Shown here piece by piece: positions 1,955 to 30,331 of a stretch of DNA of 64,000 nt; positions within the stretch are counted from its first letter, which is position 1; every line of letters begins with the position of its first letter. The translations under genes were made by a program, and so were the position numbers. Below the pieces are notes generated by a model, which worked only from the letters and a program-made list of their open reading frames with translations, ran no database searches and was not told the origin of the DNA. Source of the stretch: Owenia fusiformis (taxonomy: Eukaryota; Annelida; Polychaeta; Sabellida; Oweniidae); assembly GCA_903813345.2 (NCBI GenBank), contig CAIIXF020000004.1:20866477-20930476 (forward strand), read 5' to 3'.

Positions 1955-4900
1955 GTAAGTACACTCAATGAATATTGAATATTATAAAAAGATTAAACAT
2001 TCCACTCAGTATTTCTGTATATGCTGTGTAAAACAAATTCTTTCATGAATCAAACTAAAATATGTCATTTTATCAAACTAAAATATGTCATTGTATCAAA
2101 CTAAAATAACTCATTGTGTCAAACTAAAGTATGGCATTGTATCAAACTAAAATATGACATTGTATCAAACTAAAATATGTCATTGTTGAAACCTGATAGC
2201 CAAATTATCCAGTTAGTTAAAGCCATGCATCTTCACAATTCTAATGATTTTTAGAAGGGAATTTATTTTTAATGTTCATTGGTTCTTACTTACATATTGG
2301 AGGAATTCAGTCTGAAAGGTATTAAGACATCAAAACGTTACCTGGTCCATTGGTTTTTCTTATGTTTTCTAATGAAATTGTTTTATTCAAACTCAAAGGA
2401 AGATGGTGTGTTGTAGAAATATCTTTCAGGCTTCAAGGAAGGTGGTGTGTTTAGTAAATGTAAAATCATCTTTCAGGCTTTGGTATGTTAAAATATCCTT
2501 CAGGTTATTTTCGGTTTTTAAGCAAGGTGGTGTGATTTATAACTGTGAAATCATCTTTAAGGCTTTAAGGAAGGGGGTTTTATAAATGTGAAATCATTTC
2601 CAGGCTATAAGGAAGGTGGTGAGATTTATAAATGGGAAATCATCTTTCAGGCGTTAAGGAAGGGGGTGTGTTTTATAAATGCAAAATCATTTCCAGGGTT
2701 TAAGGAAGGTGGTGAGATTTTTAAATGGGAAATAATCATTAAGGCGTTAAGGAAGGCGGTGTGTTTTATAAATGTGAAACCATTTTTCAGGCTTTAAGGA
2801 AGGTGGTGAGATTTATAAATGTGAAATCATCTCTCAGGCTTTAAAGGAAGGCGGTGTGTTTTATAAATGTGAAATCATTTTTCAGGCTTTAAGGAAGGTG
2901 GTGAGATTTATAAATGGGAAATCATCTTTCAGGCTTCAAGGAAGGTGGTTTGTTTTATAAAAATGAAATCATCTTTCAGGCTTTAAGGAAGGTGGTGAGA
3001 TTTATAAATGGGAAATCATCTTTCAGGCTTCAAGGAAGGTGGTTTGTTTTATAAAAATGAAATCATCTTTCAGGCTTTAAGGAAGGTGGTGAGATTTATA
3101 AATGTGAAATCATCTTTCAGGCTTTAAGGAAGGTGGTGAGATTTATAAATATGAAATCATCTTTCAGGCTTTAAGGAAGGCAGTGTGTTTTATAAATGTG
3201 AAATCATTTTCAGGCTTTAAGGAAGGTGTTGAGATTTATAAATGGGAAAATCATCTTTCAGGCTTCAAGGAAGGTGGTTTGTTATGTCCCCACCACATAG
3301 TGTGGGGCCATATTGTCGGCCTAGGCGCGTCTGTCCGTCTGTCCACCTATGCCCAGTCACAAGCCTGAAGAACCTGCTTTTATATCTAATGTGGATTTTT
3401 ATCTTACCAATCATGACTTAAATATTAATATGGGTATTTCCTATAATTAATATATACTGGATTTTAACTTACCAAATATGACTTCAATATTAATATGGGT
3501 TTAAACCTATAATAAATTAAATACTGGATATGACAAATAAATAAAATCAATTATAATCTACCTATATGATGTAGATATCCAAATGTCGGTCTGAATTTAT
3601 CTTTGTGGAAAGATTGTATGCTTCAGTTGCTCTTTAACAAAACATGTGGGACAGTGTATCTATATATTACAAGATGTCCGTCTGTCTGCCTGTCCATCTG
3701 TCCGGCAGTTTTCTCCAAAACCGCTACAGGTATCACCTTCAAATTTTCAGGGATAACTCATGAGTGCATATAGATGTGGATGAAAAAAAATTAGCTCGAT
3801 ACCTACTTCCTGTCGGCCATTTTGAAGTCAAATGCTAAAATCCTTGTCTGCAAACTTTAAGAAAAACGGCTTCACAGTTGCTTTTAAAACTTTAACATCT
3901 TGTTCAGCTCACTTCATTCTAGATCTGATTAGGTTTTGGACCTGTTAGCTCAGTCATGTCAGCCATTTTGAATGTTTAAAGAAAAGTTAGCGCGCTATAA
4001 TACTTTGTATCATATTGAATGGTGTTTTTCAGTTTTCATACTTTAACTATTTAGTAGCTTTAAAATAATTTCAGGTGTACTTTGTTTTAAAAGCCTATGT
4101 TATTGTTAATAGTAGTTATATGTGATAATTTTGTAGAAAGAAATCAGCAAAAACTCATAATCACTTTTTTATTGTCGGCCATTTTGGATTTTTCCGTCCT
4201 AAAATCTTGTCAGTAAAGTCTTGTCTACGCATTTTCAGGTGAACCGTTTGGTAGATCAATTTCAAATTTTCAGGAATGATTCTTAGTATGAAAATCTAGT
4301 ACAGATTAGTTTTTGGGCATTCTGGGTAAATGTCAAGGCAGCCATTTTGGATTTTCCGTCCTAAAATCTTGTCTGTAAAGTCTTGTCTACGTGTTTTCAG
4401 GTGAACCGTATGGTGGATCAATTTCAAATTTTCAGGGATGATTCTTAGTATGAAAATCTAGATCTGATTAGTTTTGGGGCATTTTAGGTAAATGTCAAGG
4501 CAGCCATTTTGGATTTTCCGTCCTAAAATCTTCTCTGTAAAGTCTTGTCTACGCATTTCCAGGTGAACCGTTTGGTAGATCAATTTCAAATTTTCAGGGA
4601 TGATTCTTAGTATGAAAATCTAGTACAGATTAGTTTTTGGGCATTCTGGGTAATTTTTAAGGTGGCCATTTTGAATTTTCCATCCTCAAATTGTGTCGGT
4701 AAAGTCTTGTCTACTCATTTATAGGATAACCATTTGACGGGATCACCCATAGGTGGGGACATTTTGTACACATTTGTGTTCTTGTTTTATAAAAATGAAA
4801 TCATCTTTCAGACTTTAAGGAAGGTGGTGAGATTTATAAATGTGAAATAATCTTTCAGGCTTTAAGGAAGGTGGTGAATTTTATAAATGTGAAATCATTT

Positions 4901-7900
4901 TCAGGCTTTACGAAAGGTGATGTATTTTATAAATGTGAAATCATTTTCAGGCTTTACGAAAGGTGGTGTATTTTATAAATGTGAAATCATTTTCAGGCTT
5001 TACGAAAGGTGGTGTATGGGTCAAGTATTCATTCATTTGGCAGTAGTTGGAAAAGCATGGGATTTGTCTTCCAAGATATCAGTGGTCCATTTAGTTATGG
5101 ACTCAAATCAGAAAGAGTAAGTGCCTTGATGATTTATCAAAGTTATAAAATTAATAATATATGTCTCATTAACTTTACCAAGCATTGACATAGCAAGAAT
5201 GATACACATGGACTTGCAAAACTTTCTTAACTCATAAGTCATCCCATTAGGCTCTTTAGTTAATTACAATTTCCCCTTCAATATAATACTATTCTATATA
5301 AGTACAACTACATCAGTTACCAGGACTGAATGTTGCTACATAATGGTTTGAAAAGCATATCTCCGTAGCCACCAACACTGTTCATAGCAACAAACAGTGT
5401 TTCCTTGGCAACAGACAAAAGTTGTGAAATAATGATGGCCTTGATGTAAATTATCTTTTTGTAAATTGCTGGTACAGTCCAATACGTGTAGTTTTATTTT
5501 CTAGATTTACAATGTATAAGACATCATTCTTTTCTCTTGCAATAATTATATAATTTTGATATTTGTTTCAGAATGGCAGCAGGGGACTTTTAATGGCTGT
5601 TCAGGGACATATTATTAGAAACCTGCTGCACAGACATTCTCAAGGAGATAAACCGCAGAAATTGTAAGCAATAACTGTATGGGATACAAAATCATGAAAA
5701 AAGCAGGCCTGTAGCCAGGGGGGGGGGGGTTCGCAGGGCGAATTTAAGAAATCTTGACCTAAAATAACACATAAACCTAAAGTAACGTGTAATTTTAGCA
5801 GGGCGAACCCCCCCCCCCCTCCCTCCTGGCCAAAAATTCTTTCAAAATCATGGCCTGAAAAGTGCTCCATTGTTGTACCTTAGCTTATAGCAACGTAACA
5901 TTGCAGCAATCCAAAAATGAAAAATGTCATTTTAGTGTGTGTTTGTGTTACTTTAGGTTTATGTGTTATTTTAGGTCAAGATTTCTTAAATTTGTCAGCC
6001 CTGCTATTGCATTTTGCACATTTTAATGAATTCAAGTCAGAGTGAGTTTTGTAATTCATTGTTTTGTGTATTACATTCATTCATTTAGAATTCATTGTAA
6101 AATAAGAAAAAATAATGAGATGTGACATGTAATTGAAGGAGCATATCTATAGTCATGTAGTAGATCTATATCTGTATCTCAAACCACCATACATGTAACA
6201 GATTTATCCCATGCCTACTGATTTTCTAGGTACATTTTACCTTCTTAGGTTTCAAAACTTAAAAAAATAAATTTTATCAAATTATTAAAGATAGTATGGA
6301 GTGGGACCAGGATGGATACAGCTGTATGTGCTGAACATCAGGATAGTGGGATAGATACAGAAATATCCATCCTGTCTCAGGCATACACTCTATATTCCGG
6401 CATAGTATATACCTAGAATCTCAGTAGGTAATTGGATATAAATTTCAAGAATGGAGTTCTGAATTTAGGTCATCTCATCAAAACAATTCTTATTTTAGGT
6501 CTAGTCTTAAACCAACTAATTTTGAAAGGAGACGAGCTCTGATTGAAAGTTTGTGTCAAATGTTATGGAGAGCAGGAGAAAACAATGGTTGCCAAGTATG
6601 TCTCCATGGCAACCAACCATGTTTCCCTAACAACAATATGTACAGAGATGATAATATCACAGAAAGGGTAATTATTTCTTGAAAATTGTATCTTCATTAT
6701 CATTAAATAATTTTTATGATTACATTGTTTTTTTAATTTTAATTTGTGTCTGATATTTTGGCAAAATTGCCAATTTTTGGTAAGTACCTGTTCTACAAAA
6801 TTGGCAGTTTTGAACTCCCAAAGCTCCTTAATATTTTGAAACGTTTAAACCTTAGCCTTTTGAGAGCATGATTAATGATTACATGTCTTGATATTTTAAT
6901 GTTTTTTTTTAATGTATACACATTACTCTGTTTTTCACATATTTCAGTTTTCACATTTTTAATGTTCACATTTTTATCACTGTCACATTTCCCCACATAT
7001 TGTTTTCAGCTTCACCTTTTTGCCTTCAAGAAGTATCAAGATCTAGAAATGTTTATGAAAAGATACATTCACTTTGTAAGTACCAGTCCTTGTTGTTTTG
7101 TAATTATACTCCTCAAAAAAAGTTAAGGACCTCATAGGTTTACATGTTAATCCCCATATTTGTTTAACGACTGTTTTCTAAGCAGGGAACAAAAGAAATC
7201 CCAATAAAGAAAATAAATCTGTATCTTGATTCTATTCACTATAAAGTCCGCAACGTTTCAATGTTATATTATCTCCATTACATTGGGTCAAAAGGAAGAG
7301 GCTCGATAGAGAGAGCTTTTTAGATGGGTATAAGTTTTTTATTATTTCGATGATCAATATAAAATTGTAACACAATTTAGGAGATGAGGTGAATTTTCAT
7401 ATTCTAAAATATTATTTCTGAATCATCAAAATGGATTTTTCTACAACCTTTTTGGCGAATCGATGAACTCGTTTTTCAGGTTTAACCCTTTCTTTGTGGT
7501 TAAATATAATGCCCTTTATATAATTATAGAAACAAAATATTTTGTTTCTAGGTCTTTAATTATCTAAAGTCTTACATAATGTGGACACATATTTGTTTAA
7601 CTGATCAGAAATATTTTTTTTCCCCATTCATCAATTTTTCCATGTTAAAGTATAGGGGGGCTGAGATCCCCGGGAATTCCTGAGGTTTGACCCATTATGT
7701 TATGGTTTTGAACCGATGATAAGTTTATAGAGGGAAATGCTGTTCCATCGAATTATTTGATTTTGACTGAAATTAACGCATTACGTTATTCACACTGGGA
7801 GCTACAAAATATTGGGTTACGGATTTATTAAAACGTACCTTTATCTCGCATTCTCGGTTTACCTGCGTATCATGATTTATGATCATGATTTATCGTTTAT

Positions 7901-16900: not shown

Positions 16901-19900
16901 TAAGCCTATACCGAGTTATATATTAATATTATAATTCGATAACCAGAGCCACTACAATATTATGTTTTAGATATGAAATGTCAAAATAAATTCTATGAAT
17001 AAAAAATGATGATCATCTTTGTGTTTGTGAAATACCATGAACCACAAAATACCATAGACGCGGATATTTGATTAGTTTTGCGCTTAGATACATATTGAAT
17101 TGAATAAAAATACTCAATCGGCCGGGCGTCGTAGTAAATATCGGAGCAATGTGACCACGGTATTACCAGGCCTGTTCTAGGGGTATAAGTGCTAGTTTAG
17201 AAGGCATTTATTTAAGGAATAAAGACCGATATTTTATAATTTATGGCGCAATGTATGACCAAAAATTATATTCTACTCATTGTTAAAAGACCGAAATCGC
17301 GTAGCAATTGCCAGAATAAAATCTGAGGTCATATATTTGACATTAATCATGAAATCAATTCTAATATGATAGACAGACAAGAAAAACAATTATTACCACC
17401 TTATCGGTCCTATTCTAGGGTTATGAGTGCTAGTTTAATAGAAGGCATTTATTTTACTATATCAACATGAGCAGTTACGTCATATTTGCGGGCCATATTG
17501 CCGGTCAATAAATAAGGGTTATGTACTTGGAGGTTTTGGGTATGGGGTTTATCCAGAGGGAGATATGCATATCTACCTGAGGGACCGTAGGGACTGATGG
17601 TAGATGTGCATATCTCACGAGGAATGAACCCAATATCCAAACCGACCGTACATAACTGCTTTATCCTATACCAAGTAGAGTTTTCAGGAGCATATGGCCA
17701 TTTCAATAGTACAAGGTGTGAAAATAAACAAATCATTCATATGCAAAGTCATTTTATTGCATTACCGGAAGCGGGAAGATATGCACCGGAAGCGGGAAGA
17801 TATGCACCGGAAGCGGGAAGATATGCACCGGAAGCGGGAAGATATGCACCGGAAGCGGGAAGATATGCACCGAAGCGGGAGATATGGCGGGAGATTTGGA
17901 GGTTCTGGATATGGAAACCTCAAAATCAGGATACGGGATATATATTACCAACTTATCTCCCTAAAACTCTACTTGGTATAGGATAATGCATTTTTCAATC
18001 GGCAATTTTCCCCGAGAAATTAGATATCGTTCAGCGCGTAAGGTTTTCTTGCTATTTCAGCTCTGGACATTAACGGTGGTAATATTCGTAGTAACGTCAT
18101 TTCTGCGAGCAATATAGAAGAATATTGGACCTTGGGCCTTCGGCGCTCAATCCAATATTTCAGTATATTGCCCTTCGAAATGACGTTATTGTACTACTCT
18201 TTGTATTTATGAATTTTGGCGGCCATACATATTCCAATAAAGACCATTAATTCAATTGTTGTAGCTATTGTGACTTCACGTATCGTATTAGAATTTACTA
18301 TATCGACTTGACCAGTATGTGGAAATAAGATGAAATGACGTTATTAGTACTATTCAACTTAGTTTAGCAGAAATCGGTAGTTTTCGAAAACGAAAGAATG
18401 TCGGCAACTATCTTGAATGAAGCTACAGTCAAAACAGAAATGTTTGGGAGAACTTTGAATTTAAAACTAAGCAATCAAATGACCATATTGAAACAGTTTA
18501 TGTAAAAATCCTATACAGACCAGTTTAAGGTACAGCTGGAAAGTAACATTTTGGTAAAAAATTGCTAGTATATACCTGCACATGTTATTTTCTGGTACAA
18601 AATTAAGTACAAAGTCATGTGTGTATTTCCTTGCTTTTTTCAGGAAAGGATCATTACACTGTCTATTTTTAGTAAACCTGGAAACAGGTCAATGATAGTT
18701 CCTGTGTTGTCTGAAAACTTTGAAAGAAAAATAGAAAGTGTGGAATATCGGAATGTCCTGGAGTTCCCATTGAACTCCTACCAGATACTCTAAAAGAAGA
18801 CAATGTAATGATACTTTCCTTAAAAAAGCAAGGAAATTGACACATGCCTTCATACTTTATTTTGTACCAGAAAATAACATGTGCAGGTATAGAAATGTTT
18901 TACCAAAATGTTACTTTCCAGCACCTTATGACGTTTTCATCTGGGGTTTTGTAGGGACTTATTCCGTCCCTATTAATAAATGGAGGGCATCAATGATAAC
19001 ACCTCTCAACCAAATGCTCCAATTTACTTGACCCACACAAAAGCAATATCCCAAAACAATTATGTATATCATGATATCATGAGAGGTACGAGTGGTCGCA
19101 CTTTATACGACCTTTCAAACGTTATTGGGGTGGGGGGGGGGCATACTCACTCTTGATTTGTGATGTGCCAGCTTTCAGAAGCATCATAGACAACTGTAGC
19201 CTTTCCCGTCTTGGGTCGGTCGCTTTTGCTTTTGGGTACGTTGCTGAGACTTATTAGACCTGACGCATTCGTTATAATATGTTTCTAAATTCAACTGTGC
19301 TTCAAGTACGAGGCTGAACACGGAAACCGATTCTGTACAAGTGTAAGTTCAATTCACTCCAGGGAGTGTATTCAGTTGTTATATGTTACGTACATATTCA
19401 TTGATGCGTGCTAAATGTTCGAGCTTGTTCGGTCAACCTGTCCTTGAATGTAATACATACTGTATAATCATTGTGAACATAAAAACTCTTTTAGTCTTTA
19501 GTGTCCTAAACATTGTACCCCTAATTAACAAAACATTCCAGATTCTATGAGCATGTATTTTTGAAGTTATTGATTATATCAATCATACGAGTGTACGAAA
19601 TAAACGTATCAAACAAAAAGCATCCATCGTTGACACACACATTCCGTGAACACTCAAATTAATCAATTTGATGCTTCAAGCAAGGTTGATATATAGAGAT
19701 TTTGTTGGGACCGCCCTCAGTGATGTTTCAATACTAATATTATCTAAACGATGTTCAATCAACAAAGACCATATCAATATGTTTCTTTTCTGGAATATAT
19801 TGATGGCAATTTCTTTCCCAATTTGTATATTACCTTGAAGTAAATTATGTCTGAAATCTGACAAAAAGTGCGAGGCGTATTTTTCATACGCTCTCTACAT

Positions 19901-22900
19901 CTTTCACATTTACACAAAGAGTACACTAAAGGTAACCAGAAAAGAGCGTAGTGAACGTTTTGGATATTTTTATATATATAAAAATTGGAAAATGAAGTAG
20001 CCGACTTATTTTTTATTTTTAAAAAGTAAGTCACTGGATTTTCTCGTTTTCATACATTTTATAAACGAAATATTGTCCACACTCTTTTCTCGCTACAATA
20101 GTGCAGTCTTTTATGCAAAACTGAAAGTTGTAGACAACATTGGAAAGAGGTCCATATTTGAAAGTAATGTGTGGCTTCGTTAAAATTAGACTGTATAAAA
20201 ATTCCCAAAAAACACATCTACCTTAAAGTTCTTGAGAGATTAAGAAAGTGTTTCCATGACTAACTTGGGGTCTGTTTTCAGAGAAAGTCCCTGAAATTAG
20301 AAATTCACAAAAATCGAGGGGATCACATTCTGCTCAATTTTGTTCATGACATTGCTAATGCGCATAAACATTACTAAGTACACCATGCAACACCGTTGTG
20401 TTACAATGTAGGTACATACAATTAATGTAGTTACGTGTACAATACATAATACAACTTAATATCTTTAACGAGCAGGTTAGACTCTTCCATACTTTTTTAA
20501 AAACTTTTCAAAAGCAGTACTAGTTTTAATATGTATTCAGTCATAAATCACGTCAACACAACCAACGTGCAATATTTTGACAGACGTTGTCACCCATTAA
20601 TGCCTAAACCTGTCATGAGCACGTACAATCAAAATATTTGTGCGTCAATCAAGCCGTGAAAATAAGCAACCAATATCAAAATATAAGAAAGCCCAAGATA
20701 CATTGTATTTGTAAAAAAGGGAACGTTACATAATGTCAGGTTCATATTTGCTGCGATTCATCGGTCGGCCCTCGGCCGATTGAGTATTTTGTTTCAAACA
20801 AATACAATTTTGAACAAAACACTCAATCGGCCAGACACCTATGTGACCCAGCCATAACGTGGGTTAATTGTCACGAAATGATTGTTCTAGCTAACTGTGA
20901 TATAAATGCTAATTGCATATATACTCCTCAAAAAAAGTTAAGGACCTCATAGGTTTACATGTTAACCCCCATATTTCTTTAACGACTGTTTTCTAAGCGG
21001 GGAACAAAAGAATTCCCAATAAAGAAAATAAATCTGTATCTTGATTCTTTTCACTATAAAGTCCAGAACGTTTCAATGTTATATCTCCATTACATTGGGT
21101 CAAAATTTGATGTTAAAATTGATGAATTTCATGAAATTTAACAAAAATGGCAGATCCCATGTTAAACAAATGGGGAATGGTTGGGTTGCCATAAGTCATA
21201 TGAGGAACGATCCATCCATCCGATTGCTCTCAAAATTGAGATTGTAAGAGATAATTAAATTTGCTAAATTGTCTACTCGACAAAAATATGATTTAATTGT
21301 CCAGGCTTTACAAAAGTTAATGGTTTCAAATTCAATAATCTTTTAATGAACCTCTTATTGAAATAACACAGGTGGTTCAGTGAGGTGGTCAAAATTACTT
21401 TAACGCTCCGTATCGCTAATTTTAACAACATAAGCGAGACATTTAGCATGTAAAATGTAAAGTCATTCCATTTTCTACTTAGAAAGTATTTTTAATAAAT
21501 GTTTTGCTGAATAGATATTCCAAAATCTGAGTTGCCCCTAAGCCACCATTCCCCATTTGTTTAACATAGGATCTGCCATTTTTGTTACATTTCATGAAAT
21601 TCATCAATTTTGACATCACATTTTGACCCAATGTAATGGAGATATAACACTGAAACGTTGCGGACTTTATAGGGAATAGAATCAAGATACAGATTTATTT
21701 TCTTTATTGGGATTTCTTTTGTTCCCCGCTTAGAAAACAGTCGTTAAACAAATATGGGGGTTAACATGTAAACCTATGAGGTCCTTAACTTTTTTTGAGG
21801 AGTATATTTTGTAATCTCTCAATTTATAACATGTTAGGCTATGTCAGATATGTGTGAGCGTAAAATATTAAATCGACTCCTGTATGATATATATAGGTCA
21901 CGTCTCACAAGGCTTATACCTTATCTCAAATCCAGCCTTAAAATTGAAACAACTTTTACAAATATTTCAGGGAAAATTCGGTATGCAGCTTTTACAACAT
22001 GTGCTCGACGCTTACTGCTGTACAAATTGAAGTGCGGTGTTTCTGCTTGCAATGGGTGTATGCCTACATGCATTAAAAACTGTTGTACATTGTAGGGAGA
22101 AGTGTTAGTTTAAACAAGTCAGTCAATGGAAGTACTAGTGCTGTAACTCGACTAAAAACTAGCCATCATAATTACAAATAAAATTCATCTATGGTCATTA
22201 CCCCATAACAAATCGTGGGAATACTAAAATAAATTGAAATGTATCAGGTCTTATCACTATACAAGAAATGTATTTTATTGCGTTTGGGTCACGTAGTACG
22301 AATTAGCAAGAAAATGATTTCTATTTGGTCGTTTAACGTTATGAAAATAGAACGGTAATTGTAAATGCAGTATTACTGAGTGAACGGTGTATGTATTAGT
22401 GAATAAGATCACTTAGGCTCTAAGCGGCGAGATAAACTAAGTCTATGTCTTTAAAATGTTTATGAAAAATTTTCGGACAAACCTTTTTCCTTATAACCTC
22501 AATTGTTGAGGATTTCAAAGATTTTTAGCATCATGTTCTCAACAGAATAATAATGGGCATTAATGAATTTGTGATGCTAAAGATAGAAAAGGTTTTACAG
22601 GTGGTCGGAAAGTTTTTAATTTTGAAATGGGATTTGTTATTACTACATTATCGAGAAAGCTTATCAATTGTCCATTATAAACATTTTTTTTTGTATATTG
22701 TCCAGCGGCGACACAGCCGCAGAGCCACATTTTGGCAACCAGCATGTATATACGATAACATTATTGTATGTAAATAATACACTCGGTTTTTCTGCAGCAG
22801 CCGCAGAGCCACATCCTAGTTAATGTTATGTTTCTTAAGTGAAGGTCAGAATAGAAATCTCAATACTTAACTTGAAAGGCGACTACGTCAACCGCAGATC

Positions 22901-25900
22901 AATTTACTCCCCAGTCACATTTGTCGCACAGTGGCCGTAAGTAGACCGCAGATCAATTATATCAGTGAAGGGAAGCCGTAGATTTTATAACTCGGAGTTA
23001 CAATATTTGTTAATTTCTGCGGTCCCCGTAGAAATCAACAGGCCGTACGTAGCCAGACCGCATAAAGGTCATTTCATTGCAATCCGTTCAAATCGTTTAG
23101 CTACAAAAAATTGATTGACTAAACGTATGATACATAAATGAGAGCTAAGAAAAAAGCGCAAGAAAAAACAGTGAAATGTACTTGAAGTGGCGATTGTGTT
23201 TTCTGCTTACCAGTTACCCAGCTCTAATAGTGCGATATAAGGTGACTTGATTATGCAGATGAGAAGACCCCATTGGTTTCCCGGTCAAACAATCAAAACA
23301 GACGGGGACAAGCTTTGTTTGAACTGTTACTATCAGACTATATCTAGTATTTCTTTGTTTCGTGACCAGAAATCCACTTAACTATAGGGAATATATTCCG
23401 TTATAAAGATAGATTGTTTTCACTTACCAATCATTCACTAACATGTGCTGTCATATTCAGCTCTGGCCTTCATGTCAAAAGGGGGAAGGTTTAACTAGAC
23501 TCTGCACGCAGGGTAATAATATTTTAGAATATAAAAATTCATCACACCTCCGATATTGTCTGAAAATTCCATAATGATCGTGTAGAAAATAAAAAAGTTG
23601 TACTCATCTAAAAAGCTCTCTCTATCGAGCCTCTTCTTTTGATGTCAAAATTGATGAATTTCATGAAATTTATGGGGAATGGTTGGGTTGCCATAAGTCA
23701 TATGAGGAACGATCCATCCATCCGATTGCTCTCAAAATTGAGATTGTAAGAGATAATTAAATTTGCTAAATTGTCTACTCGACAAAAATATGATTTAATT
23801 GTCCAGGCTTTACAAAAGTTAATGGTTTCAAATTCAATAATTTTTAATGAACCTCTTATTGAAATAACACAGGTGGTTCAGTGAGGTGGTCAAAATTACT
23901 TTAACGCTCCGTATCGCTAATTTTAACAACATAAGCGAGACATTTAGCGTGTAAAATGTAAAATCATTCAATTTTCTACTTAGAAAGTATTTTTAATAAA
24001 TGTTTTGCTGAATAGATATTCCAAAATCTGAGTTGCCCCTAAACCACCATTCCCCATTTGTTTAACATGGGATCTGCCATTTTTGTTACATTTCATGAAA
24101 TTCATCAATTTTGACATCAAATTTTGACAGAATGTAATGGAGATATAACATTGAAATGTTGCGGACTTTATAGGGAATAGAATCAAGATACAGATTTATT
24201 TACTTTATTGGGATTTCTTTTGTTCCCCGCTTAGAAAACAGTCGCTAAACAAATATGGGGATTAACATGTAAACCTATGAGGTCCTTAACTTTTTTTGAG
24301 GAGTATATTAGTATAAACGTTTTAAAATTGAATGTTTCTCACATATGACTTCTCAGTAGAGTTGGCACAGTCTTACACAATATCTCACCAACTAAACCTT
24401 CTGAAATTTCTTTACATCTTGCTCAACAAGGATTTAATTTGTAGTAGCATATTGAAGATGATTTACCTTATGAGAATATCAATGTTTTTATTTACAGTTT
24501 GAAGCTCCAACAGGATGTATCTTATACCTCTATAGTATGGCTTTATCCAGAACAGTGCCAAAGTAGGTTTCGTATTACTTTAGGGTATTTTTCCAGAAAA
24601 TGTTGTATAAGTTCACAATTCTTGAAGATATGGAAAATCATATTTTTTGAATAGATATGGTAGATCATATTTCTGAAGGTATGGTGGAACATATTTCTTG
24701 AAGATATGGCATATCATAATTCTTGAAGATATTGTAGATACATATTGGTTAGGAATTAGAGCTGTAAGTTTCTGGACTCCAGAGTATGTTATCATCGCAA
24801 AAGTGGTATAAAAATAATTAGATGATTTCACCAAATACATTCTACACCAACATCATAACAATTTTAGAAGAATTGGTAACAGTCTTTGAGAAAAACATGA
24901 AAAATGCAAGCCAGAAACATGTAATAATTAGAGGTTATGTCATTATGATGTGAAATGCCTGAGTTCTCCCAATGTAGGCCGACCTTGGGAGGCTCTACAT
25001 TTGGGCAAGAAAGAAGGCATATTTCACGTCATAGTGACATAGCTGATGTATTACATACTTTTATTCCCATGGTTACTTTGTACCGATGACATCACACATC
25101 TCTGTGCGAGTAGAATTTGATTGAAATCAGACATGATGTCGTGATTTTGTCATGGTTATCAAAGAAATCTAATATCAAAACGAGGTACGGGGGCTATATT
25201 GGGGTAACCGCTCAAAATCTGTGAATATAGCCAACTAATTTTCCCATTGACTTGCATACAAATGCATCACTAGGTATGTAATATAAGAGTTGAAAAAATG
25301 TTTTATTCTCGTCATCTCCATCCCACATTGTACAGGGTGGGCAAATAAAAATGGGACACTCACATCTAAAAGAACAGCTTTGTTCATTCTTGCCCAAATA
25401 TAGAGCCTCCCAAGGTTGGGAGATTTGTTAAGATTAAAATCTTGCCTGGGGTCAAAAAATCATATCCAAAAATACAGCCTTAGTAATCATAATATAAGCA
25501 GCTGATAAAAATATGAATTGATTATTCAGTTTTTCTCCCATTTCAGAATAATTGAAGATCTTGAAGATGCTATACCTCAACTCCTAACTGACAATGAAGA
25601 TGTGTCAGGGGCACTAGTCAATCTTTTATTGACTGGCCGGGCTACTAGACATCTTCACAATGGCAAGATAGACTACAGTGAAGATGGAGAAGCTTTGGTG
25701 AGGAAATTATGACTGGGGCACTAATTTTCTTTAACTGGGATTCTAGACAAAATGGCTTCAGATACACTGTAATTTGGAGAGATTTTCTATGATAAATCGT
25801 TAAATGAGAGCTAATGGCAGGCACCACATTAGTCTTGTCATCAAACGTCCAAGAAAACTCTACTTGTTCAACTTTAGATTTTTACTGATGTGAAAACAGA

Positions 25901-28900
25901 CAAATTCTAAGATCTAGTTGGGTTTTGTGCATGCTGAGTAAATTATTTGATGGCCATTTTGAATTTTTGAAAAAATATGCAATATTGATCATTGTGTATC
26001 TTGTCACTTGACATGTAATTATTTGGTGAAAATGTCATTTAGATCAGTATATTCTGATGATAGTATTCTCATTTTGTTTGATCTTTCTACAATTTCATTA
26101 CAGAATCAACCAATGGTTGGAATTCTAGAGCGAAGTGAGATTGGCTTTCTGTACTGGCACAAAGATGAAGCAAATGATAATAGAACACAGGTGTGTTACA
26201 ATATGTTTTATAAGGCTACTACAGGGTAAATGTCTTTTTAGTGGACAAAGTGTCCTGGATTTCTTATTTTATTTATTTCCTTCAAATGGTTAAGTAAAAG
26301 GATTTTGCAGCAATGTTTTGAAACCCAAAAACCAGACAATAATTTGTGACATGCCTTTGTAAATACACTTAGTATAGGATGGGTTATATAGCTTTTAAGA
26401 ATATGCATAGACATAAGAACAAACCCAGGAACTCGCACAACCTGCAAGCTCTAGACTATGAAACATGCTCCTTCTTTGAATGTCAGGGCTCTAGTAGATA
26501 CACATACAATTTGAATACAGTACTAAACACTCCCTAAAAGCCAGTTGTATTGCTCTCACCATGAAGTATCAAATCATTTCAGGTAGGGAGTATGTTAAAG
26601 ACTCCCAGATGTCCTGTATGGATCACTAAAGTGAATGGACAGTTTGGTTGTCTATTCTCCCTCACATTAGATCTCTTAACTGACTGGAGGAGCGAGCACA
26701 AGTTCAATGTATATTACTACACGGGTCTACCAATACACACAAGTGAGCTGGTTCTTTTAGTAGGTAAGTATATCACTACACGGGTCTACCAATACACACA
26801 AGTGAGCTGGTTCTTTTAGTAGGTAAGTATATTACTACACTGGTCTACCAATACACACAAGCGAGCTGGTTCTTTTAGTAGGTAAGTATATTACTACACT
26901 GGTCTACCAATACACACAAGTGAGCTGGTTCTTTTAGTAGGTAAGTATATTACTACACTGGTCTACCAATACACACAAGCGAGCTGGTTCTTTTAGTAGG
27001 TAAGTATATTACTACACTGGTCTACCAATACACACAAGCGAGCTGGTTCTTTTAGTAGGTAAGTATATTACTACACTGGTCTACCAATACACACAAGTGA
27101 GCTGGTTCTTTTAGTAGGTAAGTATATTACTACACAGGTCTACCAATACACACAAGTGAGCTGGTTCTTTTAGTAGGTAAGTATATCACTACACTGGTCT
27201 ACCAATACACACAAGTGAGCTGGTTCTTTTAGCAGGTAAGTATATTACTACACGGGTCTACCAATACACACAAGCGAGCTGGTTCTTTTAGTAGGTAAGT
27301 ATATTACTACACTGGTCTACCAATACACACAAGCGAGCTGGTTCTTTTAGTAGTTAAGTATATTACTACACTGGTCTACCAATACACACAAGCGAGCTGG
27401 TTCTTTTAGTAGGTAAGTATATTACTACACTGGTCTACCAATACACACAAGCGAGCTGGTTCTTTTAGTAGGTAAGTATATTACTACACTGGTCTACCAA
27501 TACACACAAGCGAGCTGGTTCTTTTAGTAGGTAAGTATATTACTACACTGGTCTACCAATACACACAAGCGAGCTGGTTCTTTTAGTAGGTAAGTATATC
27601 ACTACACTGGTCTACCAATACACACAAGCGAGCTGGTTCTTTTAGTAGGTAAGTATATTACTACACTGGTCTACCAATACACACAAGTGAGCTGGTTCTT
27701 TTAGTAGGTAAGTATATTACTACACAGGTCTACCAATACACACAAGTGAGTTGGTTCTTTTAGTAGGTAAGTATATCACTACACTGGTCTACCAATACAC
27801 ACAAGTGAGCTGGTTCTTTTAGCAGGTAAGTATATTACTACACGGGTCTACCAATACACACAAGCGAGCTGGTTCTTTTAGTAGGTAAGTATATTACTAC
27901 AGTGGTCTGCCAATACACACAAGTGAGCTGGTTCTTTTAGTAGGTAAGAATATTACTACATGGGTCTACCAATACACACAAGCGAGCTGGTTCTTTTAGT
28001 AGGTAAGTATATCACTACACTGTTCTACTAATACACACAAGCGAGCTGGTTCTTTTAGTAGGTAAGTATATTACTACACTGGTCTGCCAATACACACAAG
28101 TGAGCTGGTTCTTTTAGTAGGTAAGTATATTACTTCACTGGTCTACCAATACACACAAGTGAGCTGGTTCTTTTAGTAGGTAAGTAAATTACTACACTGG
28201 TCATCCAATACACACAAGTGAGCTAGGTAAGTATATTGCTACACTGGTCTGCCAATACACACAAGTGAGCTGGTTCTTTTAGTAGGTAAGTAAATTACTA
28301 CACTGGTCATCCAATACACACAAGTGAGCTAGGTAAGTAAATTACTACACTGGTCATCCAATACACACAAGTGAGCTAGGTAAGTATATTGCTACACTGG
28401 TCTACCAATACACACAAGTGAGCTGGTTCTTTTAGTAGGTAAGTATATTACTTCACTGGTCTATCAATACACACAAGTGAGCTGGTTCTTTTAGTAGGTA
28501 AGTATATTACTTCACTGGTCTATCAATACACACAAGTGAGCTGGTTCTTTTAGTAGGTAAGTATATTACTTCACTGGTCTATCGATACACCCAAGTGAGC
28601 TGGTTCTTTTGATAGGTAAGTATATTTCTACACTGGTCTACCAATACACACAAGCGAGCTGGTTCTTTTAGTAGGTAAGTATTTGAGTGTCTTTATACAG
28701 TTGAAAGGAGTCAGGCCCTCAGCCAGTTTTTGCCAAGGGTAGTTCACTTTTTAAAAAAACTCCAGGGGTGTTCATATTTGAGAACTTTTGCCCAAAATGG
28801 CCAAATCCAATTGAAAAGTTGCCAGAATGGTGAAATTGCATGATTTTGAAAGAAAGGGGTTCCGGGGACTCAAACCACAATTCACCTCTTAATGAAAAAG

Positions 28901-29463
28901 TTGAATGTTGCCAATTGTAATATAGGTGATTTATGGGAGGAATCGAAAATAATATACCAGTACATTGAATGAAATATTTATGTATTATTTATTGCATTAT
29001 AGACACAAGATTTGGTAGAAAATTGCAGTCCAAGACTACAATAGGACGTAAAGAAGAAGAAAAGAAAATCCCTGCATTAGATCAACTTATAATGACTAAG
29101 TAAGTCTAACTTGTTGTGTGGTTGAGAACATGAAAATAAAATACTGTAGAGTTGGAAAAACATGGAATAATAACTTCATATAGTCACAATGCTCTACAAT
29201 GTTTAAGAGAAATCTTTCTTATGATTCTTTTTGTTCCCATTTTGATGTCACCATCACAAGTTATTGTCTTCTCTTTTGTGGACTGTGCTCGTTAGTTGGT
29301 GTTTAGTGGTACATGCTTGGCATTTGGTGTCTGTAACAAATGGTAGGTGGTGACATTTTGCATGTTAATGCCTTGTTGTAATCATCTATTCATTATGTTT
29401 CCTTTATTCTTCAGATGGTATGGCGCAGAGGTAGACTGGAATGGTGTAGCACCATCTTATTGA
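1869..29463 (+). CDS. MINDY4B: MINDY4B-like (inactive MINDY deubiquitinase family), spliced gene, 5' end outside window
   Basis: Eleven coding exons can be joined with unbroken phase: 1869-1954, 4997-5116, 5572-5663, 6499-6667, 7010-7075, 24498-24562, 25547-25697, 26104-26190, 26583-26763, 29003-29099 and 29415-29463 (stop TGA). They give about 385 residues. Known of the family: MINDY proteins are cysteine proteases that trim K48-linked ubiquitin chains; MINDY4B is described as inactive. Seen here: the fold landmarks WKSMGFVFQD, LLMAVQGHIIRNLL, LVNLLLTG, CLFSLTLDLLTDWRSE and the terminal VDWNG. The stretch that should carry the catalytic Cys (family GGPCG) reads NGSRG, and the stretch that should carry the catalytic His reads NGQFGCLF, so both catalytic residues are missing. 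Inference: a pseudoenzyme, possibly ubiquitin-binding. Upstream exons lie left of the window. I rate MINDY4B above MINDY4 because of the lost Cys and the MAVQG motif; a phylogeny would settle it. Confidence 0.85.
2049..2190. repeat. AT-rich minisatellite, unit about 25 bp
   Basis: About six degenerate copies of tatcaaactaaaatatgtcat. It is separate from, and lies upstream of, the 47-bp acceptor array. Confidence 0.75.
2395..4996 (+). repeat. 47-bp minisatellite made of the exon acceptor junction
   Basis: The unit is gtgaaatcatctttcag followed by gctttaaggaaggtggtg and agatttataaat. About 19 copies occupy 2395-3284; after an inserted element four more run from 4780 to 4949 and the fifth is the authentic exon start at 4997. 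Each unit contains the intron end, the AG, and the first 21 or so bases of the exon. Copies next to the exon share its exact gctttacgaaaggtggtgta; distant ones read tttaaggaagg. A few distal copies have lost the AG context (for example tttaagg near 2547 and attaagg near 2737). Confidence 0.9.
3285..4780 (+). mobile_element. Non-autonomous element with internal tandem repeats, inserted in the acceptor array
   Basis: It begins atgtccccaccac and ends with ggtggggacattttg and a short tail ttcttg. The left flank (aaggtggtttgtt) and right flank (ttttataaaaatgaaatc) rejoin to an intact 47-bp unit, so insertion was clean and between T residues. Inside are Cys/Thr-type gtccgtctgtcc repeats and, from about 4190, a tandem core of about 166 bp containing gccattttggattttccgtc. 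The T-T target and tandem core recall Helentron-associated or 'pearl'-type elements; that label is inference. Confidence 0.65.
4997..5116 (+). CDS. MINDY4B: MINDY4B-like exon with amplified acceptor
   Basis: 40 codons, phase 0 to 0, between ttttcag and gtaagt. It encodes ALRKVVYGSSIHSFGSSWKS followed by MGFVFQDISGPFSYGLKSER, the start of the MINDY catalytic fold. The first 21 bases, together with the preceding acceptor, are the source of the 47-bp tandem array lying directly upstream. Confidence 0.85.
5572..5663 (+). CDS. MINDY4B: MINDY4B-like exon covering the lost catalytic Cys
   Basis: The exon starts after tttgtttcag and ends TT|gtaagc in phase 2. It begins NGSRGLLMAVQGHIIRNLLH. Active MINDY enzymes have GGPCG at the first five positions; here Arg stands where the nucleophilic Cys should be, while the following helix (AVQ and hydrophobics) is kept. 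Confidence 0.88.
5704..5857. mobile_element. GGCCxGTAGCCAGG-type short element, copy 1
   Basis: It starts caggcctgtagccagg followed by a G-run and ends with a C-run, cctggcc and catggcctga. It is one of five related short elements in this window with G/C homopolymers just inside ends of the form caggcccgtagccag. Confidence 0.5.
6499..6667 (+). CDS. MINDY4B: MINDY4B-like exon
   Basis: The acceptor is attttag and the donor gtaatt; the first base completes a Leu codon and the exon ends in phase 0. It encodes an SSLKPTNFERRRALIESLCQ helix and a Cys/Asn-rich loop ending DDNITER. In frame with both neighbours. Confidence 0.82.
7010..7075 (+). CDS. MINDY4B: MINDY4B-like short exon
   Basis: 22 codons, phase 0 to 0, between tgttttcag and gtaagt. 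It encodes LHLFAFKKYQDLEMFMKRYI then HF, matching the family strand-helix segment before the central Cys/Gly strand. The intron that follows is about 17.4 kb because of the 16.3-kb insertion. Confidence 0.82.
7105..7293 (+). mobile_element. Left fragment of a split fold-back element (tactcctc family)
   Basis: It begins TA|tactcctcaaaaaaagttaa and breaks off after cattgggtcaaaa. The remaining part is found 16.3 kb away at 23637-24307 with the expected next bases. TA flanks suggest a Tc1/mariner-type parent. Confidence 0.8.
9195..9330. mobile_element. Short element with CGGCCGATTGAGTAT core, copy 1
   Basis: Ends cacatttgctcagatttat and atgaatcggagcaaatgtg are inverted. The core holds cggccgattgagtat. 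Related pieces lie at about 17100-17160 and 20735-20855. Confidence 0.5.
9680..9845. repeat. Dispersed repeat shared with 30346-30530
   Basis: Long near-matches such as ggcatattctgtgatctga and cattacataataggcattgt occur in the same order in both places. The second copy sits inside another transposon, so this is a mobile unit; its class is unknown. Confidence 0.6.
10030..10553. mobile_element. Fold-back element, arms about 250 bp
   Basis: The ends atgatcactggtgatccg and ggatcaccagtgatgat are inverted, and the inversion continues through gattacgctggttacc, aattccgacgacgtttt and gacaacagaatcgtcgattt up to a short centre near 10275-10300. No coding capacity; the transcript would fold into a long hairpin. 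Confidence 0.85.
12365..14720. repeat. Minisatellite, unit about 82 bp, interrupted by an element
   Basis: The unit contains ccactcaattgtcatgcc, aaactctgtttatttcgt and aatcgcctcttcatgtttca. About 19 degenerate copies lie in 12365-13068 and 13863-14720. The open frames over it are products of the repeat. Confidence 0.85.
13069..13862. mobile_element. hAT-like non-autonomous element with 8-bp target duplication
   Basis: The terminal repeats cccggggggttcact and agtgaaccccccggg are exact inverses and extend with tatataaa and cgtcaag. The direct repeat GTCAAACT lies at 13061-13068 and 13863-13870. Inside, tggacatttggtatggcatt is repeated about six times from 13575. The 8-bp duplication is the hAT signature; no transposase is present. 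Confidence 0.82.
15632..16707. mobile_element. Tc1/mariner-like element with TACAGGGCGTTCAATAAGTA ends
   Basis: The left end is tacagggcgttcaataagta and the right end tatttattgaacgccctgta, with TA at the border. The interior has a partial duplication (aaccatcttaggctccatcc occurs twice, near 16413 and 16557). No transposase frame was recognised. Confidence 0.68.
17100..17160. mobile_element. CGGCCGATTGAGTAT family, fragment 2
   Basis: It contains aatactcaatcggccgg and a cggagcaatgtgacc end, the inverse of the copy at 9195-9330. It appears to be one end only. Confidence 0.4.
17662..17985. repeat. 24-bp inverted repeat enclosing a 21-bp GC-rich minisatellite
   Basis: The arms are ttatcctataccaagtagag plus tttt (17662) and its inverse complement (17962-17985). 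Between them, ccggaagcgggaagatatgc is repeated about five times (17765-17880) with a 21-base period, giving an open PEAGRYA reading. Nothing shows that it is translated. Confidence 0.75.
18536..18929. mobile_element. Fold-back element, arms about 120 bp
   Basis: Ends taaggtacagctggaaagta and tactttccagcacctta pair, and internal tgcacatgttattttctggt pairs with accagaaaataacatgtgca. No coding capacity. Confidence 0.8.
20735..20855. mobile_element. CGGCCGATTGAGTAT family, copy 3
   Basis: It contains cggccgattgagtattttg and, inverted, caaaacactcaatcggcc within 70 bases, with catatttgctgcgattcat and a ctatgtgacc end. Same family as 9195-9330. Confidence 0.5.
20922..21806. mobile_element. Intact tactcctc-family fold-back element
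   Basis: It begins tactcctcaaaaaaagttaa and ends ttaactttttttgaggagta, with TA on both sides and arms of about 270 bp. It is a close relative of the element split at 7293/23637, and lies within the insertion that split that copy. Confidence 0.85.
22705..23055. repeat. Cluster of short CCGCAGA repeats
   Basis: agccgcagagccacat occurs at about 22713 and 22801, accgcagatcaattta and accgcagatcaattat at about 22899 and 22951, then cgtagattt and gtccccgtagaaatc. The order suggests decayed copies of a short unit. Function unknown. Confidence 0.4.
23637..24307 (+). mobile_element. Right part of the split tactcctc-family element
   Basis: It resumes ttttgatgtcaaaattgatg exactly where 7293 stops and ends ttgaggagta|TA. 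It lacks about 30 bases (acaaaaatggcagatccc region) found in the intact copy. Confidence 0.82.
24498..24562 (+). CDS. MINDY4B: MINDY4B-like exon, recovered by phase
   Basis: 65 bases between tatttacag and gtaggt. The exon reads FEAPTGCILYLYSMALSRTV then P and the first two bases of a Lys codon. It is too short for an ordinary open-frame listing. It was found because the exon at 25547 cannot follow 7075 in phase; with it the join is exact and the LYSMALSRT family motif appears. Confidence 0.85.
24622..24742. repeat. Short minisatellite, unit about 32 bp
   Basis: About four degenerate copies of ttcttgaagatatggtagat lie in the intron just after the 24498-24562 exon. Confidence 0.6.
24966..25424. 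mobile_element. Fold-back element
   Basis: accttgggaggctctacat followed by ttgggcaagaa at the left pairs with ttcttgcccaaa and tagagcctcccaaggt at the right. It lies in the intron between 24562 and 25547; no coding capacity. Confidence 0.7.
25547..25697 (+). CDS. MINDY4B: MINDY4B-like exon
   Basis: Acceptor ccatttcag, donor gtgagg. The first base completes Lys, then 50 codons beginning IIEDLEDAIPQLL. It carries the conserved ALVNLLLTGRAT helix found in MINDY4-group proteins, followed by an acidic loop. Confidence 0.88.
26104..26190 (+). CDS. MINDY4B: MINDY4B-like exon
   Basis: 29 codons in phase 0 between cattacag and gtgtgt. It encodes NQPMVGILERSEIGFLYWHK then an Asn/Asp-rich tail. The ERSEIGFLYW segment corresponds to the family strand ahead of the catalytic His region. 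Confidence 0.85.
26583..26763 (+). CDS. MINDY4B: MINDY4B-like exon covering the lost catalytic His; donor amplified
   Basis: Acceptor atttcag, donor TAG|gtaagt, 60 codons plus one base. It encodes VGSMLKTPRCPVWITKVNGQ, FGCLFSLTLDLLTDWRSEHK and the YYYTGLP motif. Active MINDY4 relatives have His before the aromatic of the F-x-x-LF strand; here it is Gln. The last 50 or so bases plus the donor are the template for the 59-bp tandem array that follows. Confidence 0.9.
26705..28684 (+). repeat. 59-bp minisatellite made of the exon end and its 5' splice site
   Basis: The first unit is the real exon end at 26705-26763 plus donor gtaagtatat. About 33 further units follow, each with taccaatacacacaagtgag, ctggttcttttagtag and gtaagtat. 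One copy near 27354 has lost the donor (gttaag); around 28217-28380 some copies have a 19-base deletion (gagctaggtaag). A block near 27125-27290 (acaggtctacc, then atcactacac, then tagcaggtaag) recurs near 27715-27880, 590 bases later, i.e. ten units, showing that expansion also occurs in multi-unit blocks. Confidence 0.93.
28711..28880. mobile_element. GTAGCCAGG-type short element, copy 2 (degenerate)
   Basis: Resembles the element at 39071-39265: it has gttcactttttaaaaaaact, gccagaatggtgaaa and tgcatgattttgaaagaaa in the same order. The ends are worn. Confidence 0.5.
29003..29099 (+). CDS. MINDY4B: MINDY4B-like exon
   Basis: Acceptor gcattatag, donor gtaagt after ACT AA. It encodes DTRFGRKLQSKTTIGRKEEE and KKIPALDQLIMT. 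The Lys-rich insert is followed by the short hydrophobic helix that precedes the family C-terminus. Confidence 0.8.
29229..29385 (+). mobile_element. Short copy of the TGTCACCACC family in the last MINDY4B-like intron
   Basis: It starts gatgtcaccatcac and ends ggtggtgacattttgcatgt then taatgccttgtt. The same ends border the 1.7-kb element at 30937-32670, so this looks like an internally deleted relative. Confidence 0.6.
29415..29463 (+). CDS. MINDY4B: MINDY4B-like last coding exon
   Basis: Acceptor ttcttcag; the first base completes Lys. It encodes WYGAEVDWNGVAPSY and TGA. The VDWNG ending matches the MINDY4-group C-terminus, so the protein ends at its normal place. Confidence 0.85.
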
Positions 29464-30331
29464 AGCACCCCTCGAAAGAAACTTTGACTCGATCATTGTC
29501 AGTCAGTTTCACAAAATGGACTAGTCCAATTAAGAAGTAAATAATACATATGTTGAAAATGTGACTGTTGGAGCACTAACACAAATGTACAAGTTTGGTA
29601 GAGACATTCCATTACATTTATAAATTGCCCTTTAATAGAAACTTGCACTAGCCCATTATCCAAATTAGAAGTAAATAATACATATGTTGAAAATGTGACT
29701 GTTGATCATGAGCACTAAAACAAATGTACAAGTTTGGTAGAGACATTCAATTACATATTACTGAAAGAAGAAAGATGATACATCGGCACAGGCTGGTATC
29801 GAAAGATTTGTCCGCTGTGACGGAGCATGCTATTTTTCGTAAAAACACTAAAAATGCTTCACACTTTATTTTTTAACTCATATGTTTCGTTACATCAAGG
29901 AAAATTACTTGCTCCATGCAATGGGTATATCATTTGCGGGTAACCTTCACTTCTGTTTGAAGTCCAATACCGCTAGGAGTAAAAGCTATTGAAAACGGCG
30001 CCAGAGTATCAAACTCTAAAATGTACCATTTCTTTTTAAACTTTTTAATGGCATGATATAGTGACACGATAATATTAAAATATGTTTTCAGCATAACTGT
30101 AAAGGTATTAATGAGATATTAACGCATTACGTCTTTTTAATTTTTTTATAAAAAATAATACGAATATTTTTTGTCCGCTGTGACGGAGCATTTTCACAGT
30201 TTACATTTGCAACTGCTCCGTCACAGCGGACAAAAAAATTAAACATTATTTTTTATAAAAGAATTAAAAAGACCAAATACATCAACATCTCATTTATACC
30301 TTTATAGTAATGCTGAAACCATGTGTAAATA

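What the first reader, a model, noticed from the sequence alone, without database searches (positions are those of the whole stretch)
26705..28684. A 5' splice site amplified about 33 times directly downstream of its exon
Each 59-bp unit carries the last 50 bases of the exon and an intact TAG|GTAAGTAT donor, one of the best possible U1 pairings. Using any donor after the first adds TTCTTTTAG, an in-frame stop six bases before the second donor, so only the first donor gives the full protein. The array is an unusually pure set of strong competing donors; either position decides splicing or the gene leaks into truncated products.
Basis: partly seen in the sequence, partly recalled or inferred. 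Interest (0 to 1): 0.87.

Follow-up and report, generated by a model that had tools for sequence, protein, structure and literature searches.

The report
Splice-junction minisatellite, one of many here
The end of one exon, with its splice signal, has been copied about 33 times in a row into the following intron; this is real, and it is one example of a genome-wide habit of this animal, already known from amphioxus as "mirage" repeats, that offers natural tests of how cells choose between many identical splice sites.

Summary
A 59-bp minisatellite (26709-28682) repeats the last 55 bases of a coding exon plus GTAA of the intron: 34 donor positions, 33 with GT intact, 27 exactly TAG|GTAAGTAT (10 of 11 pairs with U1). 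Only the first donor (26764) gives the full protein; the later ones add the same in-frame stop. The gene is a catalytically dead MINDY-4B-like relative of deubiquitinases. Its paralogue has the same intron, same phase, with one donor, so the intron is older than the array.

The array is not a special device of this gene. A second array in the gene (2416-3283, 4785-5017) multiplies a 3' splice site. Of 20 tandem-donor arrays read in this genome, 17 start inside the 3' end of an apparent coding exon, 10 of these with a Pfam match. Distal donors are neither kept nor lost faster than control motifs, and periods show no frame preference. Best explanation: neutral "mirage" minisatellites, known from amphioxus, born by duplication across exon-intron junctions and tolerated because the exon-proximal site wins. 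No RNA data were available. New here: the scale, up to 60+ donors per junction, probably outside cephalochordates.

The parts
26583..26763 (+). coding exon of the MINDY-4B-like gene (181 bp) whose 3' end seeds the array; phase 1 end (GTA G|)
   Evidence: PF13898 match E 4.9e-38 over the joined exons; acceptor TTTCAG| before 26583; reading continues into the exon at 29003
26709..28682 (+). 59-bp minisatellite: exon copy plus 33 downstream units, each carrying the exon end and a 5' splice site; three units shortened to 47 bp
   Evidence: TRF, unit table, unique in genome
26764..26771 (+). first, exon-proximal donor GTAAGTAT; the only one that yields the full protein
   Evidence: in-silico joining
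26823..28682 (+). 33 further donor positions (32 with GT intact) at 59-bp steps with three 47-bp steps; last at 28675; dead copy at 27354
28675..29002 (+). ancestral intron from the last donor to the acceptor: 328 bp, like the three nearest introns (315, 392, 406 bp); GTAT at 28679 matches GTAT at 26709 (4-bp microhomology)
29003..29099 (+). next coding exon (acceptor TTATAG|)
   Evidence: PF13898 alignment and reading frame
29415..29464 (+). last coding exon, ends ...VAPSY then a stop
25547..25697 (+). upstream coding exon
   Evidence: PF13898 positions 171-219
26104..26190 (+). upstream coding exon NQPMVGILERSEIGFLYWHKDEANDNRTQ
2416..3283 (+). 46-47-bp array of the 3' splice site (ATCATTTTCAG|GCTTTA...) of an upstream exon of the same gene, distal part, about 19 copies
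   Evidence: TRF, sequence
4785..5017 (+). same acceptor array, exon-proximal part, 5 copies ending in the true exon; 20 further copies span the junction in all
4997..5116 (+). coding exon ALRKVVYGSSIHSFG... whose start seeds the acceptor array
   Evidence: PF13898 positions 1-44; translation
5572..5663 (+). exon carrying the degenerate active-site motif SERNGSRGLLMAVQ (paralogue: QKKGGPCGALAAIQ)

Best explanation
It is a mirage-type minisatellite: a tandem duplication that straddled an exon-intron junction, probably started by the 4-bp repeat GTAT in exon and intron, and then grew by unequal exchange or slippage to about 33 extra units, including one block copy of about ten units. The transcript carries 33 usable donors, and the spliceosome most likely uses the exon-proximal one because it is transcribed first and lies at normal exon length (181 nt) from the upstream acceptor; occasional use of donors 2 or 3 would give a stop-bearing mRNA that decay would remove. 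The array has no function of its own; it persists because proximal choice makes it harmless. Shown here: anatomy, age order (intron older than array), the same pattern at many junctions, no sign of selection on distal donors. Inferred: proximal donor use, decay of leaked mRNAs, the growth mechanism.
For: (1) The first unit is genuine exon, and a single ordinary 328-bp intron lies beyond the last donor; GTAT at both borders. (2) The paralogue MINDY-4 has an intron at the same position and phase with one donor. (3) 17 of 20 tandem-donor arrays (the window's plus 19 others) start inside the 3' end of an open exon; besides the window exon, nine of these match Pfam at E below 0.001: Muted/BLOC1S5, NIF phosphatase, Cys-loop receptor, UGDH, MRPL52, Caprin-1, B56, and below the curated cut-off kringle and protein kinase. 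(4) Acceptor arrays too: this gene, its paralogue, UGDH twice, P450, a PLP-like protein. (5) Donor letters mutate at 0.84 of the rate of the rest of the unit, control words in unrelated arrays at 0.90. (6) Periods divisible by 3 in 7 of 17, near chance; a stop lies in the first added unit in 12 of 17. (7) In amphioxus such arrays leave splicing intact by RT-PCR (PMC3087553, PMC3902484).
Against: No RNA evidence for this species. In the window array taken alone the donor letters are less mutated than the rest (ratio 0.13), although other arrays go the other way (up to 1.7). From general knowledge of duplicated 5' splice sites in vitro (not looked up here), two strong competing donors often favour the intron-proximal one, the opposite of what is proposed. 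The human IFI6 repeat does use several of its donors (PMC4526556).
Confidence: 0.75

Rival explanations
1. Leaky regulator: a measurable share of transcripts uses donors 2 or 3, giving a truncated or decayed mRNA, so that array length tunes the output of the gene, in the manner of the multi-donor repeat of human IFI6.
For: Nearly all distal donors are as strong as the first. In human IFI6 downstream repeat units serve as donors and give three mRNA species (PMC4526556).
Against: No excess conservation of distal donors across arrays, no frame preference in periods; amphioxus mirages are reported not to disturb splicing.
Confidence: 0.15
2. Recursive or nested splicing: each unit ends in TTCTTTTAGTAG|GTAAGTAT, an acceptor-like stretch abutting a donor, so that one or more units can be spliced off first, each time regenerating the same exon end and donor; the mRNA would not change.
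For: Pyrimidine-rich TTCTTTTAG directly before the donor in most units.
Against: Not a feature of the class: few of the other junctions are pyrimidine-rich before AG|GT; 59 nt is short for an intron; the stretch is simply the coding sequence of the exon end.
Confidence: 0.05
3. Intron-gain intermediate: units are being recruited as new exons or introns, as proposed for amphioxus globins and for AGGT duplications.
For: Model published for mirages (PMC3087553) and for tandem duplication generally (PMC4974935).
Against: The intron here is ancestral, shared in position and phase with the paralogue; the added units carry a stop.
Confidence: 0.03
4. Assembly artefact: the array or its length was made by the assembler.
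For: Copy number of long tandem arrays is error-prone in assemblies.
Against: Units differ by position-specific variants, arrays with different units stand on many chromosomes, and a transposon-like insert splits the sister array. Exact copy number may still be off.
Confidence: 0.02

Closest known systems
Mirage minisatellites of amphioxus (Adh3, globins Gb6 and Gb9, TnC, PGBD5)
   Same: Tandem duplications of an exon-intron boundary, at 5' or 3' splice sites, units of 10-160 bp, authentic junction kept at the array edge, turnover typical of minisatellites (PMC3087553, PMC3902484).
   Different: There a few genes, with 3-6 copies in the globin Gb6 haplotypes; here many genes, about 4 to more than 60 copies; the host is probably not a cephalochordate (GC 35%, no GFP family match), which is an inference.
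Human IFI6 (6-16) minisatellite providing multiple splice donors
   Same: A repeat at the exon end that offers a donor in successive units (Turri 1995, as cited in PMC4526556 and PMC3618361).
   Different: In IFI6 two downstream repeat units are used as donors and give different isoforms; here the unit shifts the frame and adds a stop, and use in vivo is unknown. The 1995 paper itself was not held.
Intron gain by tandem duplication of AGGT segments (Rogers model; ATP2A1; potato RdRp; fission yeast)
   Same: Tandem duplication carrying splice signals (PMC4974935).
   Different: No new intron here: the intron existed before the array.
Recursive splice sites (ratchet points)
   Same: AG|GTAAGT with a pyrimidine run upstream in each unit.
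   Different: Not general in the class and untested by RNA.

Membership tests
Mirage minisatellite | tandem repeat whose unit spans an exon-intron boundary | tested here: met
   55 exon + 4 intron bases per unit
Mirage minisatellite | authentic exon retained at the array edge, coding frame intact with it | tested here: met
   donor 1 gives the full PF13898 reading
Mirage minisatellite | occurs at both 5' and 3' splice sites | tested here: met
   donor array 26709-28682 and acceptor array 2416-5017 in one gene
Mirage minisatellite | normal mRNA splicing despite the array | not testable with these tools
   no RNA data
Mirage minisatellite | length instability between haplotypes or cells | not testable with these tools
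   only one haplotype; block duplication at a 10-unit lag is indirect support
Mirage minisatellite | cephalochordate host (context of the reported cases, not a definition) | tested here: inconclusive
   GC 35%, no GFP family match; a missing match does not prove absence
IFI6-type multi-donor repeat | several donors used in mRNA | not testable with these tools
   no RNA data
IFI6-type multi-donor repeat | downstream donors give variant protein isoforms | tested here: not met
   donors 2, 3, 4 and 34 all give the same stop
Intron gain by tandem duplication | intron absent before the duplication | tested here: not met
   same intron and phase in the paralogue
Recursive splice site | pyrimidine tract plus AG|GT at a zero-length exon | tested here: inconclusive
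   present in the window unit, rare in the class; use not testable

The most novel reading that the evidence does not exclude
In this animal lineage, outside cephalochordates, roughly one in ten splice junctions carries a tandem copy array, with up to dozens of equal strong sites per junction, and its spliceosome follows an exon-proximal rule strict enough to make such arrays neutral: a natural, many-fold replicated test of splice-site choice. The one-in-ten figure rests on 4 of 33 junctions that were not selected for arrays, a small and clustered sample.
Probability: 0.4. Interest if true: 0.75.

Novelty: new member of a known kind. Interest (0 to 1): 0.55.

Why it matters
How the spliceosome chooses among identical 5' splice sites is an old question studied mostly with engineered duplications of two sites. 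Here nature supplies many junctions with from three to more than sixty near-identical strong donors, and matching arrays of acceptors, in ordinary genes, with single-site paralogues as controls. Long-read cDNA of the species would show at once how steeply use falls from the first site. It would also show whether mirage repeats, reported in amphioxus, are a wider animal phenomenon and a source of splice variants or new introns.

Tried and rejected
RNA structure hiding distal donors: five units fold less stably than shuffles (z +2.0), rejected. Selection to keep or purge distal donors: not seen when 20 donor arrays are compared with 9 control arrays. Frame-preserving periods: 7 of 17, near chance. 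Recursive splicing as the reason for the class: few units have a pyrimidine tract. Enrichment of arrays at junctions: in about 100 Mb (C1, C2, start of C3), 9 arrays carry AGGTAAGT and 7 the reversed control word, with single-site totals 19,150 and 33,930; too few to claim enrichment. Species: COX1 not found, GFP and molluscan haemocyanin families not matched, and a paper search for one candidate was uninformative, so no name is given. The earthworm metallothionein paper describes intronic minisatellites but not junction arrays. The original papers of 2002 (amphioxus Adh) and 1995 (human 6-16) are not held.

Full report
Observation. The array exists as described. TRF gives 26709-28682, period 59, 34.1 copies, 93% matches. 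Cutting it at the donors gives the exon copy and 33 downstream units, 30 of 59 bp and 3 of 47 bp. The unit is the last 55 exon bases plus GTAA. Of 34 donor positions 33 keep GT; 27 read TAG|GTAAGTAT, ten of the eleven positions of the U1 optimum, and two read CAG|GTAAGTAT, all eleven; no other site in the 64 kb reaches ten. The sequence was found nowhere else in the 498-Mb genome.

The gene. The joined exons match PF13898 (MINDY-3/4 conserved domain) at E 4.9e-38. The active-site motif is degenerate: SERNGSRGLLMAVQ here against QKKGGPCGALAAIQ in the paralogue on C7, so this looks like an inactive MINDY-4B-type protein; that name is an inference from family and motif.

Age and origin. The paralogue has an intron at the same position and phase (...EIRLTI|G) with one donor (L081:2053), so the intron is ancestral and the array later. 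Beyond the last donor the intron is 328 bp, like the three nearest introns of the gene (315, 392 and 406 bp). GTAT at 26709 in the exon and at 28679 in the intron is the likely microhomology of the first duplication. Units 7-9 and 17-19 share variants ten units apart, a block duplication.

A second array in the same gene. A 46-47-bp repeat at 2416-3283 and 4785-5017 multiplies the 3' splice site of the exon at 4997-5116; 20 further copies span the junction. It is split by an insert of about 1.5 kb with inverted ends TGTCCCCACC. The paralogue carries its own acceptor array, about 8.5 copies of 105 bp, before the exon VGTNLKVPKNPIW..., although that locus was picked only by homology.

Genome-wide. 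A pattern of three AGGTAAGT at 35-65 bp spacing gives 650 hits; the reversed word gives 314. I read the first nine arrays and ten more found with CAGGTAAGT. With the window, 17 of 20 begin inside the 3' end of an open reading frame that has an acceptor upstream or a long open stretch; three are unclear (L060, L070, L071). Pfam supports ten of the 17 exons at E below 0.001: the window exon, Muted/BLOC1S5, MRPL52, Neur_chan_LBD, UDPG_MGDP_dh_N, NIF, B56 and Caprin-1, plus kringle and protein kinase below their curated cut-offs. Acceptor arrays lie on exons of a P450, a PLP-like protein (two), UGDH (two) and, more weakly, a laminin-G-like exon. In UGDH one exon has arrays on both sides. Of 33 junctions that were not chosen for arrays (14 partner acceptors, 14 others in the window gene, 5 in the paralogue), 4 carry copies; this is a small and clustered sample.

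Selection. If distal donors mattered, their letters should be kept or purged. Pooled over 20 arrays, donor letters mismatch at 3.5% and the rest at 4.2% (ratio 0.84); in nine control arrays carrying an unrelated word the ratio is 0.90. The window array alone has a low ratio (0.13), but others exceed 1, so I give this no weight. Periods are multiples of 3 in 7 of 17 cases, and a stop lies within the first added unit in 12 of 17. RNA folding gives no structure hiding the donors (z +2.0). These results fit neutrality; they assume that arrays chosen by exact words are comparable with controls chosen the same way.

How it most likely works. The first donor is transcribed first and gives a normal exon of 181 nt; I infer that it is used almost always and that rare leakage is destroyed. 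RT-PCR of amphioxus genes with such arrays showed normal splicing (PMC3087553, PMC3902484). Human IFI6 shows that downstream repeat donors can be used (PMC4526556). The case is open until RNA is examined.

Known kind. The class has a name, mirage minisatellites, from amphioxus. What is new is the number of genes, the copy number, and probably the host. The host could not be named: GC is 35% in the window and held loci, GFP and molluscan haemocyanin families gave no match and COX1 was not found. These do not prove absence; that the host is not an amphioxus is my inference, resting also on general knowledge that amphioxus genomes are richer in GC and carry many GFP genes.

Noticed in passing
window 2416-5017: Acceptor-site array of the same gene, 20 junction-spanning copies, split by a transposon-like insert.
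   Followed up: yes
window 3284-4764: Insert of about 1.5 kb with inverted ends TGTCCCCACC and internal 162-bp repeats; a 162-bp repeat also stands at 53907-55047 in the opposite sense (consensus shares GGACGGAAAATCCAAAATGGC).
   Followed up: partly
G000:C9:37986009-37994334 (minus strand): About twelve copies of a myosin-head segment (profile positions about 18-84) in 8 kb, which looks like a large cluster of alternative exons in a myosin heavy chain gene.
   Followed up: no
L063 (C2:33702200-33706500): UGDH exon with an acceptor array (130 bp x 7) before it and a donor array (45 bp x 12.7) after it; the next exon also has an acceptor array (91 bp x 4.4).
   Followed up: partly
window 5572-5663: The exon that should carry the catalytic cysteine reads NGSRG instead of GGPCG: a pseudo-deubiquitinase beside an intact paralogue on C7.
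   Followed up: partly
window 6668-25546: An 18.9-kb gap between recognised exons of the gene; profile positions about 128-171 were not found, so at least one exon there is unrecognised.
   Followed up: no
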